DNA of 64,000 nucleotides. Origin: Candidatus Saccharimonadota bacterium. GTDB taxonomy: Bacteria > Patescibacteriota > Saccharimonadia > Saccharimonadales > UBA4665. The notes under the pieces were generated by a model. The model was given only the letters and a program-made list of their open reading frames with translations, searched no databases and was not told where the DNA came from. Both the position numbers and the translations under genes were made by a program. Positions within the stretch are counted from its first letter, which is position 1, and each line of letters opens with the position of its first letter. This document shows positions 38,211-41,417 of this stretch, piece after piece. Where the stretch lies: contig JAQGGT010000007.1 in assembly GCA_028289245.1 (NCBI GenBank), positions 103,491-167,490 of the forward strand, in the 5' to 3' direction.

Positions 38211-38264
38211 TTCGCTTTCGCTGTTTACAGCTCATCAACACGACTAAAAAATTCGTGGAGCGAA
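38211..38264 (-). ncRNA. Hammerhead ribozyme 1 (type III), C3-to-U variant
   Basis: Read on the minus strand from 38264: stem III strand UUCGCU, cleavage nucleotide C (38258), then stem I CACGA/UCGUG with a 9-nt loop. The core reads UUGAUGA (38238-38232), followed by stem II GCUG-UAAA-CAGC, GAA, and closing strand AGCGAA. All three stems pair fully. The first core base is U where hammerheads require C3, a position that pairs with G8 in the active fold. This copy is therefore probably slow or inactive unless the U-G wobble is tolerated. Predicted cleavage is between 38258 and 38257. Confidence 0.85.
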
Positions 38265-38350
38265 TATGACAAGCAGACATTGGGTTTAGGAAGAAAGCAC
38301 ACGAGGATCCGTGACAACCGTAGACCAATGCCTACTTGCCAGATTCGCTC
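38258..38350 (-). ncRNA. Structured 3'-UTR element E1 (long hairpin)
   Basis: The minus-strand RNA from 38350 to 38258 folds as GAGCGAAU pairing with AUUCGCUC. A single C-U mismatch follows, then UGGCAAG with CUUGUCA and a further 10 bp, for about 25 bp in total. The stem is capped by a domain of about 40 nt containing a CACG-GAUCCU-CGUG hairpin. Several pairs are G-U only on the minus strand, which points to selection on this RNA strand. It starts 11 nt after the stop of the 140-aa gene. Its terminal base is the hammerhead cleavage nucleotide. Confidence 0.85.
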
Positions 38351-38361
38351 GGGGGTACGAG

Positions 38362-38784
38362 CTACAGGTACTGGCCGTACTGATTGGCGGTGGCGATGGG
38401 CTGGGCCGGGTTGGCCATGATGCGAAGGGTGAACGTGTCGTCGTCGATGGGGAAGCCGGGGATCTCGGCGTGGTCGAAGCCATGGGTGGCCTGACCGAGC
38501 AGCTCGTCGGAGAGCTCACCGTTGAGCCAAAGCACCACCGCGTGCTCTGCCGAGATGTACACCATGGCGATCTGCTTGCTGATGCCCTTGTTGCGATCCT
38601 CCTTGATGCAGGTGCGGATGCGGTCGAAGATGGTGTTGTTCTGCACGCGCACCGCCATCCTGGCTTCGTTGTCGAGAACGCCGGTGAAGCGCAGGCCGCC
38701 GGGCGTCTTGTAGCCGGTGAAGCCGAAGAAGTTGACGCTGAACTTGTCGTGCGTGAACTTGGACCTGTGGTGGTCGACGGTCAT
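38362..38784 (-). CDS. Cassette 1 protein, unknown function (140 aa)
   Basis: This 140-aa soluble protein begins MTVDHHRSKFTHDKF and has a central region with IRTCIKEDRNKGISKQIAMVY and a segment AVVLWLNGELSDELLG. It contains one Cys and no membrane segment. I recognise no family. The start has GAGGAGAAGGG upstream. It has its own extended -10 promoter (38948-38953), a hairpin leader, and a 3' E element plus hammerhead, so the coding strand is well supported despite an open antisense frame. Confidence 0.8.
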   Translation of the reverse strand: MTVDHHRSKFTHDKFSVNFFGFTGYKTPGGLRFTGVLDNEARMAVRVQNNTIFDRIRTCIKEDRNKGISKQIAMVYISAEHAVVLWLNGELSDELLGQATHGFDHAEIPGFPIDDDTFTLRIMANPAQPIATANQYGQYL

Positions 38785-38850
38785 GGGACTGCCCTTCTCC
38801 TCATCGGCGGAATGCCTCCAAGCACCGCTTGGTTGTGTGCTCCTAATAAG

Positions 38851-38898
38851 ACACAAGATGAGATGCCAAAGCTTATGCGCTGGCATCTCACCTCGTGT
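38851..38898 (-). promoter_or_regulatory. Cassette 1 leader hairpin
   Basis: ACACGAGGTGAGATGCCA pairs with TGGCATCTCATCTTGTGT as minus-strand RNA over 18 bp; the two differences from perfect symmetry are G-U wobbles. The loop is 12 nt. Cassettes 2 and 3 have different sequences with the same fold and the shared foot ACAAGATGA. A smaller hairpin CCAAGC-GGT-GCTTGG lies between it and the Shine-Dalgarno. Confidence 0.8.
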
Positions 38899-38899
38899 T

Positions 38900-38956
38900 T
38901 GTCTACTTGTCAAAGTGCTTCGGAGTAATCTCTCACAAAACAGTAGTATTCTAACA
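38900..38956 (-). promoter_or_regulatory. Cassette 1 promoter and 13-nt anti-E motif
   Basis: The extended -10 is TGT then TAGAAT (38948-38956). The early leader has a GUUUUGUGAGAG segment, the CGAAGCACUUUG mini-hairpin, and UGACAAGUAGACA (38912-38900). This last motif can pair with UGUCUGCUUGUCA in the 3' strand of E1 through 13 pairs, one of them G-U. Confidence 0.75.
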
Positions 38957-39015
38957 TAAAGAGTAAAAAATACAATACTTCGGCAGTACGTATCCTAAGG
39001 TAAGAGTTGGTTTGG

Positions 39016-39067
39016 TTCGCTTTCGTCCTTGAGGACTCATCAGCACGACTTACATTCGTGGAGCGAA
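39016..39067 (-). ncRNA. Hammerhead ribozyme 2 (type III), intact core
   Basis: Read on the minus strand from 39067: UUCGCU, cleavage nucleotide C (39061), stem I CACGA-loop-UCGUG, then CUGAUGA (39043-39037). Stem II GUCC-UCAA-GGAC, GAA and closing strand AGCGAA follow. Every conserved core nucleotide of the hammerhead consensus is present (C3 U4 G5 A6 N7 G8 A9, G12 A13 A14, A15.1-U16.1, H17). All three helices are perfectly paired (5-6 bp, 5 bp, 4 bp). Predicted self-cleavage is between 39061 and 39060, at the base of E2. Confidence 0.95.
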
Positions 39068-39154
39068 TATGACAAGCAGACATTGGGGTTTAGGAAGAAA
39101 GCACACGAGGATCCGTGACAACCGTAGACCAATGTCCACTTGCCATAGTCGCTC
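39061..39154 (-). ncRNA. Structured 3'-UTR element E2 (long hairpin)
   Basis: It has the same fold as E1 and is nearly identical over about 95 nt. The outer stem is GAGCGA/UCGCUC, then the single C-U mismatch, UAUGGCAAG with CUUGUCAUA, and UGGACAUUGG with CCAAUGUCUG. The mismatch lies two positions nearer the base than in E1, yet total stem length is unchanged. It begins 6 nt after the stop of the 105-aa gene and ends at the hammerhead 2 cleavage site. Confidence 0.88.
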
Positions 39155-39160
39155 GGGGAG

Positions 39161-39478
39161 CTAGCGGTGGAGCTTGACGACCGGGATGTACTTGGTGTCG
39201 GCGGGGCTGACGTAGCTGGGCTCCTTCTCGGGAGACCAGGTCGCGCCGGGCGGAACCCAGACGTGGAAGCCGTCTCTCGTCAGCTTGATGCGCATCTCGA
39301 CGCTACCGTCGGGCCGGTCCTTGATGGAGTACTTCGGGTGAAGCCAGCACTGACGGTCGGCATCGACCCACATGCCCCAGGGGACGATGTACGCGGTCTG
39401 GCCGGTGGTCATGCTGTCGACGGTCGGCGCCTCGAGGTCTTCGGGAAGGGTGGCTTGGCGGTTGCTGTGCAGAAGCAT
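39161..39478 (-). CDS. Cassette 2 protein, unknown function (105 aa)
   Basis: This 105-aa soluble protein is rich in Pro, Trp and charged residues (VPWGMWVDADRQCWLHPKYS, VEMRIKLTRDGFHVWVPPGA), which suggests a small beta-rich fold. No family is recognised. ATG at 39478 is preceded by AGAGAGG. A longer in-frame extension exists, but it runs through the leader hairpin and lacks a Shine-Dalgarno. It is flanked by its own promoter and hairpin leader upstream and by E2 plus hammerhead 2 downstream. Confidence 0.78.
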   Translation of the reverse strand: MLLHSNRQATLPEDLEAPTVDSMTTGQTAYIVPWGMWVDADRQCWLHPKYSIKDRPDGSVEMRIKLTRDGFHVWVPPGATWSPEKEPSYVSPADTKYIPVVKLHR

Positions 39479-39545
39479 GGCATACCTCTCTTGGGTGGAA
39501 GTGCCGGATAGTGTGAGGGTGTCGAGCGGGTGTTTTCTTACTTTT

Positions 39546-39594
39546 ACAAGATGAACTGCGAAAACGCGCTCAGCGTACTCACAGTTCATCTCGT
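39546..39594 (-). promoter_or_regulatory. Cassette 2 leader hairpin
   Basis: ACGAGATGAACTG pairs with CAGTTCATCTTGT as minus-strand RNA (13 bp, one G-U) around a 23-nt loop that holds its own small inverted repeat. Compared with cassette 1, the upper stem sequence is different but still complementary, so the pairing rather than the sequence is kept. Confidence 0.8.
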
Positions 39595-39597
39595 ATC

Positions 39598-39657
39598 TGT
39601 CTGCTTGTCAAAGTGCTTTGGAGGAACACGCCTCAACAAAACACTAGTATTTTAACA
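39598..39657 (-). promoter_or_regulatory. Cassette 2 promoter and 13-nt anti-E motif
   Basis: The extended -10 is TGT plus TAAAAT (39649-39657). In the leader, UGACAAGCAGACA (39610-39598) is the exact 13-nt reverse complement of UGUCUGCUUGUCA in the 3' strand of E2. It is preceded by the CAAAGCACUUUG mini-hairpin shared with cassette 3 and, nearly, cassette 1. Confidence 0.78.
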
Positions 39658-39697
39658 TAAAAGCTTTAAAAAAGCAATATCTCAGCACCGGTGATGG

Positions 39698-39751
39698 TTC
39701 GCTTTCGTCCTCGCAGGACTCCTCAGTACAACTATGCGTTTGTAGAGCGAA
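39698..39751 (-). ncRNA. Hammerhead ribozyme 3 (type III), variant with compensatory stem I
   Basis: Read on the minus strand from 39751: UUCGCU, cleavage nucleotide C (39745), stem I UACAA-loop-UUGUA, then CUGAGGA (39726-39720). Stem II GUCC-UGCGA-GGAC, GAA and closing strand AGCGAA follow. The core has G at position 7, which is not conserved in hammerheads. Stem I differs from copies 1 and 2 (CACGA/UCGUG) on both strands, so base pairing is preserved by paired changes. Predicted cleavage is between 39745 and 39744. Confidence 0.93.
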
Positions 39752-39857: not shown

Positions 39858-40139
39858 CTAGGACTGGGAGCGTTGGGCTTCGAGCTCGCACTCGAGTTCG
39901 GTGATGCGCTCGCGCAGTGTGTTGATCTCCTGCTGAGTGGCTGCTTGCTCACACTCGTAGTCTCGGCGGTCGTACTTATCGTAGTGCTCCTGGGGCGCAC
40001 CGATCGGCTCATTGGTCGTCCAGACAAAGAAGCTGCCATTGCAACCCGGTCGGGCACACGCAAAGCCGCTCTTCGTTCCACGCTCCCAGTACTCCGCGCC
40101 TTCGCGCAGGTGTCGCTTGAACTTCAGATGACAGTTCAT
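39858..40139 (-). CDS. Cassette 3 second protein, zinc-finger-like (93 aa)
   Basis: This 93-aa protein has an N-terminal region with Cys and His residues (MNCHLKFKRHL, then FACARPGCNGSFFVW), reminiscent of a small zinc finger. It continues into a strongly charged helical C-terminus (TQQEINTLRERITELECELE) that should form a coiled coil. No family is recognised. AGGGAGAAC precedes the ATG. It lies 10 nt after the 167-aa gene, in the same transcript. Confidence 0.78.
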   Translation of the reverse strand: MNCHLKFKRHLREGAEYWERGTKSGFACARPGCNGSFFVWTTNEPIGAPQEHYDKYDRRDYECEQAATQQEINTLRERITELECELEAQRSQS

Positions 40140-40149
40140 GTCGTTCTCC

Positions 40150-40653
40150 CTAGAAGAGGTAGGCGGTGTGCCTGGCTTGCTCGAGCTGGCTGCTGAGTCG
40201 GTCGATGGTGGCGTTGAGGTTGTTCCGCTGGCGGAGCTCGATGAGCATGGCGTCGATGTTCTCGACGAACTGCGCACGGCTCGGGTTCGTGATGAACGCG
40301 GGCTTGGTGAAGGCGTCGTCGCCGAGGGTGGTGGCGAACCTGATGTCGTCGTCCAGCACCTGCTTGATCTTGCCCAAGACATCCCAAAGGACGTCCTGCA
40401 GGGTGAAGATCTCGGGGGCTTGAACCATGAAGCCAAACTGGCCGTACATCGTCTGAAGACCGCTGAGGGTCTCGAGCGCATCGATCAGCTGGTTGCCGAT
40501 AGGCGTGAACGGATCATCTCCACCGCGCTCTCGCAACCAGCTGGCGTTCACATAACTGCCGGGGGAACCGTTTTGCATGAGCTTGGCATCCAGGTGGAAA
40601 GTGACTTCCGGGCTTTGGATGTAGCGCAGTTGCAGCATAACATTTGTAGCCAT
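40150..40653 (-). CDS. Cassette 3 first protein, unknown function (167 aa)
   Basis: This 167-aa soluble protein starts MATNVMLQLRYIQSPEVTFH. The N-terminal 50 residues look beta-rich, and the remainder is helical with a C-terminal coiled-coil-like stretch (DAMLIELRQRNNLNATIDRL). No family is recognised. GAGGAGAGA lies upstream of the ATG at 40653. Two overlapping antisense frames exist but lack start signals. Confidence 0.8.
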   Translation of the reverse strand: MATNVMLQLRYIQSPEVTFHLDAKLMQNGSPGSYVNASWLRERGGDDPFTPIGNQLIDALETLSGLQTMYGQFGFMVQAPEIFTLQDVLWDVLGKIKQVLDDDIRFATTLGDDAFTKPAFITNPSRAQFVENIDAMLIELRQRNNLNATIDRLSSQLEQARHTAYLF

Positions 40654-40980: not shown

Positions 40981-41226
40981 CTATTCCCCCCTACGCCACG
41001 AAGCCACGAACGCGATCAGGCGCCAAAGGACGCAAGCGAGCCAGACCGGAACGGTGATGAACCACAGTGCGCCCAAGATACCGGCGACCACTGCGGCATC
41101 GGTGTTGTCATAGCTCGGGTCGTACAGCGGGCCAAAGTCTCTCGCGAACTGGTTCTCGAGCTTGATCTGAACGGTGCTAGCCGTGAGCACGAACATCACG
41201 CCGTAGATGAGCCAGAAGTGGTTCAT
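40981..41226 (-). CDS. Cassette 4 second protein, small membrane protein (81 aa)
   Basis: This 81-aa protein has two predicted membrane segments (about residues 5-22 and 47-72), joined by an acidic loop (ENQFARDFGPLYDPSYDNTD) and ending in a basic tail WRRGE. Its ATG overlaps the stop of the 64-aa gene (ATGA), so the two are translationally coupled and may form a heteromeric complex. Size and topology would fit a holin or small accessory subunit, but there is no sequence evidence for either. Confidence 0.78.
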   Translation of the reverse strand: MNHFWLIYGVMFVLTASTVQIKLENQFARDFGPLYDPSYDNTDAAVVAGILGALWFITVPVWLACVLWRLIAFVASWRRGE

Positions 41227-41417
41227 GACGGGACCCTCTTGGTCTCCTGCCGATCCATCAGGATCACGGCGAGAGTGAAAAGCCCTCCTGACACGAGCAG
41301 CAAAACGAGTGGATCTTTCCAGGCACCCTTCTCGTAGGAGTCGTCGATGCGGACGGCGATGAAACCGCAAAGGTTCCACAGCACTACCAGCGTGAGGGCT
41401 ACGATCGGTTCGAGCAT
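41223..41417 (-). CDS. Cassette 4 first protein, small membrane protein (64 aa)
   Basis: This 64-aa protein has two membrane segments (about residues 4-22 and 37-55) and a short charged loop. The start at 41417 has AAGGGTAGG upstream. A second ATG 5 nt further up is in another frame. It is coupled by a 4-nt overlap to the 81-aa membrane protein. No family is recognised. Confidence 0.75.
   Translation of the reverse strand: MLEPIVALTLVVLWNLCGFIAVRIDDSYEKGAWKDPLVLLLVSGGLFTLAVILMDRQETKRVPS

What the first reader, a model, noticed from the sequence alone, without database searches (positions are those of the whole stretch)
38211..39751. Three type III hammerhead ribozymes punctuating an array of small gene cassettes
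The minus strand carries three full hammerhead folds at 38211-38264, 39016-39067 and 39698-39751. Each has stems I, II and III paired around the CUGAUGA / GAA core, and each lies in the 3' UTR of a small gene just before the next gene's promoter. Copy 2 has every conserved core base. Copies differ in stem I and stem II with paired changes, which is strong evidence of selection on the RNA. Hammerheads in bacteria are mostly reported singly, often in prophage-like contexts. A regular one-per-cassette use in a CPR-like genome is, to my knowledge, undescribed.
Basis: partly seen in the sequence, partly recalled or inferred. Interest (0 to 1): 0.95.

Follow-up and report, generated by a model that had tools for sequence, protein, structure and literature searches.

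The report
Mobile gene cassettes ending in ribozymes
A bacterial genome, likely from the Saccharibacteria, holds 29 hammerhead ribozyme sequences behind different genes, most of them predicted to cut their gene's messenger RNA just after a hairpin, in a standard cassette that likely moves between genomes.

Summary
Three type III hammerhead folds lie on the minus strand at the stated places; the middle one has every core base, the one at 38211 has C3 changed to U. They are 3 of 29 model matches in this genome, 25 with canonical core and stems, with covariation. The hairpin's last arm is also a stem III strand. The 5' segment pairs better with its own 3' arm than with swapped ones (score at least 27 in 34 of 80 vs 13 of 480). 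The leader was found in 9 of 15 hammerhead-positive and 0 of 25 negative genomes. One window cargo recurs in the same frame in another Saccharibacteria genome beside other genes. Gene-punctuating hammerheads were already known in prophages (PMC3088659). Best reading: mobile gene cassettes whose mRNA 3' ends are likely made by self-cleavage. Nothing was tested in the laboratory; the mover is unknown.

The parts
39016..39067 (-). hammerhead of cassette 3, canonical core; predicted cut between 39061 and 39060
   Evidence: (Rfam RF00008, 37.8 bits, below gathering)
39698..39751 (-). hammerhead of cassette 2, core CUGAGGA (N7=G, a free position); predicted cut 39745/39744
38211..38264 (-). hammerhead of cassette 4, core UUGAUGA (C3 to U), probably impaired; predicted cut 38258/38257
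39061..39154 (-). 3' hairpin of cassette 3, closes flush at the predicted cut and shares the stem III 5' strand with the hammerhead
   Evidence: z -8.3; L022
39745..39830 (-). 3' hairpin of cassette 2, flush at the predicted cut
   Evidence: L029
38258..38350 (-). 3' hairpin of cassette 4, flush at the predicted cut
   Evidence: L027
40884..40976 (-). 3' hairpin of cassette 1 (ends by eye); no hammerhead match follows
   Evidence: sequence; repeat families D2 and D5; no R1 match
39598..39644 (-). leader hairpin plus 5' pairing segment (39598-39610, TGACAAGCAGACA) of cassette 3, perfect complement of its 3' arm
   Evidence: R2, 59.9 bits; this leader is one of R2's rows; L022
40783..40835 (-). 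leader hairpin plus 5' pairing segment of cassette 2 (one mismatch to its 3' arm by eye)
   Evidence: 52.8 bits
38900..38943 (-). leader hairpin plus 5' pairing segment of cassette 4 (one G-U in 13 pairs)
   Evidence: 38.1 bits; L027
41435..41476 (-). leader hairpin plus 5' pairing segment of cassette 1 (perfect complement of its 3' arm by eye)
   Evidence: 25.6 bits, E 0.0027
39161..39478 (-). cargo gene of cassette 3 (105 aa, no Pfam); 63% identical cargo in the same frame in locus L173
38362..38784 (-). cargo gene of cassette 4 (140 aa); only itself found in the protein search
40150..40653 (-). first cargo gene of cassette 2 (167 aa); four relatives besides itself in the protein search
39858..40139 (-). 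second cargo gene of cassette 2 (93 aa)
40981..41235 (-). second cargo gene of cassette 1 (84 aa; weak PHROG match to a membrane protein)
41223..41417 (-). first cargo gene of cassette 1 (64 aa)

Best explanation
The hammerheads are the last part of a standard gene cassette, repeated as an array here, whose messenger RNA is predicted to cut itself after a 3' hairpin and so likely makes its own 3' end apart from the next cassette or host gene. Shown by sequence: the order promoter-like box, bulged leader hairpin, 5' pairing segment, gene, 3' hairpin, type III hammerhead; covariation in the hammerhead, in the leader and between the 5' segment and the 3' arm; the strand shared by hairpin and stem III; the same frame with different genes, and one cargo in the same frame elsewhere. 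Inferred: transcription runs through the hammerhead; it cuts after C17; the upstream product snaps shut into a hairpin ending at the cut, which would block religation and 3' exonucleases; the 5' segment would pair with the same 3' arm, opening the hairpin and freeing stem III, most plausibly while a ribosome at the stop codon holds the hairpin's 5' arm open, which would couple cutting to translation and leave a 5'-3' panhandle. The unit likely spreads horizontally, by a route not identified.
For: Hammerhead; canonical core and three stems in 25 of 29 own-genome copies and 45 of 52 copies from relatives. Hairpin: z -8.3 for one predicted mRNA 3' end; one of the last three bases before the cut is paired upstream in 20 of 27 own-genome sites and 37 of 76 of all sites folded (no shuffled control); sense strand folds better than antisense in 51 of 81, Wilcoxon 3e-5, against 30 of 81 control windows inside genes. 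Exclusive folds: the stem III strand is mostly held in the upstream hairpin at minimum energy in 17 of 28 own and 18 of 45 other cassettes; forcing the hammerhead fold costs a median 5.6 kcal/mol in G000. 5'-3' pairing: own score at least 27 in 34 of 80 vs 13 of 480 swapped; shuffled-arm p<=0.05 in 36 of 80; by eye also in three cassettes that the leader model found and R1 did not. Leader: same bulged shape in 26 of 31 folded (my count), covariation on ten chosen rows; found in 9 of 15 hammerhead-positive and 0 of 25 negative genomes. Stop codon a median 15 nt before the hairpin, at most 20 nt in 47 of 73 (automatic gene picks). Mobility: 0 of 5 other same-genus genomes have a copy; no R1 match at the infB-DUF5663 junction of six relatives; four cargo pairs shared between genomes among 80 proteins; the L173 cassette resembles cassette 3 up to the hammerhead's end but has other neighbours.
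Against: No activity or RNA data. The copy at 38211 has a changed core. In 7 of 28 own and 14 of 45 other cassettes the minimum-energy fold already contains stem III, so no switch is needed there. The 5'-3' pairing was not significant in 44 of 80; two-gene cassettes are partly missed by that test window. The pairing has no sense-strand preference (13 vs 17, 7 ties), so it does not by itself prove RNA over DNA. Leader hits cover 14 of 29 own-genome hammerheads (my count), and 6 of 15 hammerhead-positive genomes show none. The sigma-70 scan does not list the promoters read by eye. Some cassettes lack a hammerhead match. No mobility enzyme was identified.
Confidence: 0.58

Rival explanations
1. 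The complementary 5' and 3' segments are terminal inverted repeats of a DNA element, and the hammerhead is a hitch-hiker or a relic. A transposase or recombinase would act on the DNA ends.
For: Inverted repeats frame many cargo genes (p<=0.05 in 36 of 80); they match within a cassette and differ between cassettes and remain by eye where no hammerhead is matched; the pairing shows no RNA-strand bias; the distribution is patchy.
Against: The repeats lie inside the shared unit: leader on one outer side and hammerhead on the other are conserved too. The 3' hairpin has sense-strand bias. No candidate enzyme in the two families searched (PF00589, PF00078); transposase families were not searched.
Confidence: 0.17
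2. An RNA-copying cycle: hammerheads cut tandem transcripts into unit lengths, the panhandle aids ligation into circles, and reverse transcription returns cassettes to the genome, as in retrozymes.
For: Arrays with one ribozyme per unit in three of four window cassettes, complementary ends; reverse transcriptases in 2 of the 6 hammerhead-rich genomes searched.
Against: The two enzymes are of different kinds, retron VI-like and DRT/group II-like, and 4 of 6 hammerhead-rich genomes have none, two of them incomplete. Each unit has its own leader. In two cargo pairs similarity ends 2-5 nt past the hammerhead, not at the cut site.
Confidence: 0.06
3. A new integron-like system: the 3' hairpins act as attC-like single-stranded DNA sites and a tyrosine recombinase shuffles the cassettes.
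For: Arrays of small unknown genes each ending in an imperfect hairpin; one tyrosine recombinase in G000, which passes the XerA model that NCBI titles 'tyrosine recombinase/integron integrase' (231.6 against 220 bits).
Against: Cassette-free relatives have a similar single recombinase; it scores best against XerC and XerD and far below the integron-integrase cut-off (137 against 265 bits). Cassettes are dispersed over 6 of 7 contigs. The hairpin is biased to the sense RNA strand.
Confidence: 0.06
4. Prophage remains: hammerheads process long phage transcripts, as described for prophages, and the cassettes are phage morons.
For: Published precedent (PMC3088659); unknown cargo; one weak PHROG moron match among six window cargo.
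Against: No DNA match of the array in 50,697 phage or 72,556 plasmid records; one strict leader pattern is absent from viral contigs; the single viral hit of the hammerhead pattern belongs to a different, type I-looking arrangement; the array sits between host genes infB and DUF5663.
Confidence: 0.1

Closest known systems
Clustered hammerheads flanking single genes in prophages (Perreault et al. 2011, PMC3088659; passages seen)
   Same: Several hammerheads, each beside a gene of varying identity, thought to cut transcripts into gene-length mRNAs.
   Different: Here each cassette has its own leader and promoter-like box, the ribozyme shares a strand with a 3' hairpin, the predicted mRNA ends are complementary, copies are dispersed over the chromosome, and no phage genes were evident at the window array.
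Hammerhead_3 (Rfam RF00008)
   Same: Core, three helices, open stem III.
   Different: All three window copies fall below the gathering cut-off; the stem III strand competes with an upstream hairpin.
Integron gene cassettes with attC sites (recalled)
   Same: Arrays of small unknown genes, each ending in a structured hairpin; cargo varies in a constant frame.
   Different: No protein over the integron-integrase cut-off among the PF00589 hits of G000, own leaders, dispersed copies, hairpin biased to RNA.
RAGATH-10 RNA (Rfam RF03147)
   Same: Weak match of the 5' UTR hairpin region of two window cassettes (29.1 and 24.8 bits).
   Different: Below the 41.2-bit cut-off; found at E<=0.01 in 1 of 60 genomes, G000 itself, although 23 of 60 carry hammerheads.
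Retrozymes and other hammerhead-bearing circular RNA elements (search listings only, PMC7761336, PMC11722881)
   Same: Hammerheads at unit boundaries of mobile units (recalled).
   Different: Here protein-coding bacterial genes with leaders; no consistent reverse transcriptase.

Membership tests
Hammerhead ribozyme, type III | Core C3 U4 G5 A6 N7 G8 A9, G12 A13 A14, A15.1-U16.1, H17 | tested here: met
   Met by 2 of 3 window copies and 25 of 29 genome copies; 38211 has C3 to U
Hammerhead ribozyme, type III | Three helices supported by covariation, stem III open | tested here: met
   11 of 16 pairs with two-sided changes; slid controls at most 4
Hammerhead ribozyme, type III | Rfam RF00008 score over the gathering cut-off | tested here: not met
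   0 in the window at gathering; best 37.8 against 48.5. This is a curation threshold, not a feature of the fold
Hammerhead ribozyme, type III | Self-cleavage at H17 | not testable with these tools
   needs transcription in vitro or RNA-seq of cyclic-phosphate ends
Integron / gene cassette | Integron integrase (IntI) | tested here: not met
   one tyrosine recombinase in G000, 137 against 265 bits for integrase_gron; it does pass the XerA model
Integron / gene cassette | attC R'/R'' boxes (RYYYAAC...GTTRRRY, recalled) | not tested
   no attC model was run; not seen by eye
Prophage gene-punctuating hammerheads | Prophage context | tested here: inconclusive
   window array: no phage or plasmid DNA match, 1 of 6 cargo with a weak PHROG, flanks infB and DUF5663; the other loci of the genome were not scanned for phage genes
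RAGATH-10 | Score over 41.2 bits | tested here: not met
   29.1 and 24.8 bits in the window, 33.5 best in the genome
Retroelement / retrozyme-like | Consistent partner reverse transcriptase | tested here: not met
   2 of 6 hammerhead-rich genomes, of different kinds; an enzyme supplied from elsewhere is not excluded

The most novel reading that the evidence does not exclude
A self-contained mobile mRNA module of Saccharibacteria: any gene placed in the frame is given a promoter, a bulged 5' cap-like hairpin, complementary ends that close the mRNA into a panhandle, and a ribozyme that cuts its own 3' end only when translation opens the hairpin. The unit of horizontal transfer would be defined by RNA structure at both ends, a kind of gene cassette not described before.
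Probability: 0.3. Interest if true: 0.92.

Novelty: new variant of a known kind. Interest (0 to 1): 0.74.

Why it matters
What prokaryotic hammerheads do is called an open question in PMC6155905 (passages seen). Here are dozens of natural replicates with different genes in one frame, and some versions without a hammerhead match, so a role in mRNA 3' end formation can be tested directly. It would also be a new way to package and spread single genes in small-genome bacteria, and standard annotation (Rfam gathering, Pfam) sees almost none of it in this window.

Tried and rejected
Rfam at gathering finds nothing; RAGATH-10 looked promising but was not found in the other 59 genomes. Integron: not supported. 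Reverse transcriptase cycle: hits in 2 of 12 genomes, different enzymes. Phage or plasmid origin: no DNA matches; two viral contigs share only 25 residues with a cargo and carry no R1 match. Cargo function: of six window cargo none has a Pfam match over its cut-off, one a weak coiled-coil-type match (one was tested as a longer frame); of ten others one is over the cut-off (DUF2807) and one weakly below (DUF6524); no PADLOC match for the six window cargo; one AlphaFold model, mean pLDDT 66.6, which I judged too poor to search. Exact insertion ends: the junction in relatives is too diverged to place them. The leader alignments misplaced the hairpin in many rows and were not modelled. Dropped before counts: 8 of 84 sites (2 of 29 own-genome) by strict core or stem pattern, and locus L069 was left out, 1 of 82 sites, 8 of 81; one search used the 81.
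Full report
Observation. The window is G000:C6:103491-167490 of a 1.22 Mb, 7-contig genome. The three minus-strand hammerheads are real in sequence and place. Rfam at curated cut-offs is silent; relaxed, it finds only 39015-39068. A 16-copy alignment from this genome shows 96.8% of cells paired and two-sided changes in 11 of 16 pairs, against at most 52.7% and 4 pairs for slid partners; one of the five measures (further pair types) is not above its shuffles. Selection on the RNA fold is well supported. The copy at 38211 has C3 to U.

Scale. Model R1 finds 29 copies in the genome at E<=1, 27 of them at 44 bits or more, on 6 of 7 contigs; 150 of 541 first-look candidates were scored. Of 60 genomes (own included) 23 have a copy at E<=0.01; the five other genomes of the same genus have none. 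In an even sample of 379 genomes of the phylum 35 have a match at E<=1e-6, all but G000 with one to three (stricter filters). A cassette-type hammerhead pattern in named genomes hits 12 loci, 11 titled Saccharibacteria or Saccharimonadia. I infer that the host is of that group; no call names it.

Anatomy. Reading the flanks gave a frame. (a) A -10-like box, read by eye; the tool's sigma-70 scan lists none of them in the window. (b) A leader hairpin with a 1-3 nt bulge on its 5' side, stem-UU-GAG...CUC-C-stem: this shape in 26 of 31 leaders folded, by my count, with covariation on ten rows chosen because they align well (96% paired, 5 of 10 pairs with two-sided changes). (c) A segment, often TTTGACAAGCAGACA or a variant. 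(d) In several cassettes another hairpin before the ribosome site. (e) One or two small genes; 15 of 16 tested cargo proteins have no Pfam family over its cut-off. (f) A hairpin of roughly 80-130 nt whose inner part often has a small stem and a pyrimidine-rich side. (g) A type III hammerhead.

The 3' hairpin and the hammerhead share a strand: in the window the hairpin's 3' end is the 5' strand of stem III. In cassette 3 the predicted mRNA 3' end is a hairpin flush with the cut (z -8.3). By a loose test (one of the last three bases before the cut paired upstream) this holds in 20 of 27 own-genome sites and 37 of 76 overall, without a shuffled control. The sense strand folds better than the antisense strand in 51 of 81 cases (Wilcoxon 3e-5), the reverse of control windows within genes, 30 of 81, which points to RNA. 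By energy, at least half of the stem III strand is held in the hairpin in 17 of 28 own and 18 of 45 other cassettes, while 7 and 14 show the hammerhead stem instead.

The 5' segment is complementary to the hairpin's 3' arm in the same cassette. Examples: GACAAGTAAACAGAGA with TCTCTGTTTACTTGTC; GACAAGCAAGGATAG with CTATCCTTGCTTGTC; AGAGTGGAAACTAC with GTAGTTTCCATTCT. On 80 distinct cassettes from G000 and relatives, own pairs score at least 27 in 34, swapped pairs of dissimilar arms in 13 of 480; shuffled-arm p<=0.05 in 36 of 80. In three cassettes found by the leader model but without an R1 match the complementarity is there by eye. The duplex has no strand preference (13 against 17, 7 ties), so DNA-level repeats remain possible.

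Co-occurrence. The leader model R2 hits 9 of 40 genomes at E<=0.01; all nine are among the 15 of those 40 that have hammerheads, none among the 25 that have not; six hammerhead-positive genomes show no leader. In held loci it finds leaders upstream of 14 of the 29 own-genome hammerheads (my count).

Mobility. The array stands between infB and a DUF5663 gene. Of seven relatives searched I read the junction in six: G001, G002, G004 and G007 have only a short spacer and G003 and G005 carry other genes; none has an R1 match there. Among 80 cargo proteins (one automatic pick per cassette) four pairs are shared between genomes, each gene lying just upstream of a hammerhead. The clearest is the window's 39161-39478 cargo: a 63% identical protein in locus L173 of Saccharibacteria isolate RYN_410, with leader, 5' segment, hairpins and hammerhead in the same order. 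Similarity runs in pieces from the -10 region (alignment) to 4-5 nt past the hammerhead and stops (blastn); the neighbours are an HxlR regulator and a DUF520 gene instead. That cargo was found in none of the 59 other relatives searched. Two cargo proteins were sought in 5.8 billion proteins: one has four relatives, one none besides itself (a word-based search that misses distant kin).

Mechanism. I take the module to be a 3' end maker and insulator. Precedent: hammerheads punctuating prophage genes cut in vitro (PMC3088659, passages). The new step, inferred, is the competition: hairpin or hammerhead, with the 5' segment able to take the hairpin's 3' arm. The stop codon lies a median of 15 nt before the hairpin (at most 20 nt in 47 of 73 with a hairpin, of 79), within reach of a ribosome (footprint recalled), so translation could open the hairpin. 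This step is untested. Some hammerheads are followed closely by an ordinary terminator-like hairpin (L042, L043), which fits processing before termination.

Rivals. DNA inverted repeats of a mobile element; an RNA-copying cycle; an integron-like system; phage morons. No protein over the integron-integrase cut-off, no consistent reverse transcriptase and no phage match were found; transposase families were not searched.

Literature. Searches for hammerhead ribozyme with integron, Patescibacteria (15), attC (16), Saccharibacteria (53), gene cassettes (94), for ribozyme with candidate phyla radiation (66), for RAGATH (11) and three broader ones showed no account of such cassettes in the listings. 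I saw passages of PMC6155905, PMC6154101 and PMC3088659, not whole papers. The library is partial.

Noticed in passing
L132:11789-12530 (IMGVR_UViG_3300020042_006915): A viral contig has hammerhead-like motifs after three consecutive genes (R1 24.4, 18.8 and 12.1 bits), looking like compact type I forms (GGTTAA CTGATGAG ... TTAACC); a separate gene-punctuating use.
   Followed up: partly
L187:5243-5380 (G000 C4:82742-82879): Two convergent cassettes end tail to tail with a terminator-like hairpin between their hammerheads; the second one has core C3-G8 replaced by U3-A8.
   Followed up: no
L173:1840-1990 and 2850-2975: By eye, the cassette in this genome sits between long imperfect inverted repeats (TTCTTTGCTGCGTCAAAGAACC...), as if inserted in the middle of a palindromic element.
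   Followed up: no
window:38163-41637 (infB-DUF5663 junction): In same-genus genomes this junction is nearly empty (G001, G002, G004) or holds other single genes (G003, G005), so it looks like an insertion hot spot.
   Followed up: partly
window:40660-40735 and 38792-38867, minus strand: 5' UTR hairpin region resembling RAGATH-10 below cut-off; GATGAG occurs before and after a CTCATC, so the ribosome site could be masked in one of two folds.
   Followed up: partly
L182:1676-2524 (G000 C7:90250): Retron type VI-like reverse transcriptase (PADLOC RT_VI best), apparently unrelated to the cassettes.
   Followed up: partly
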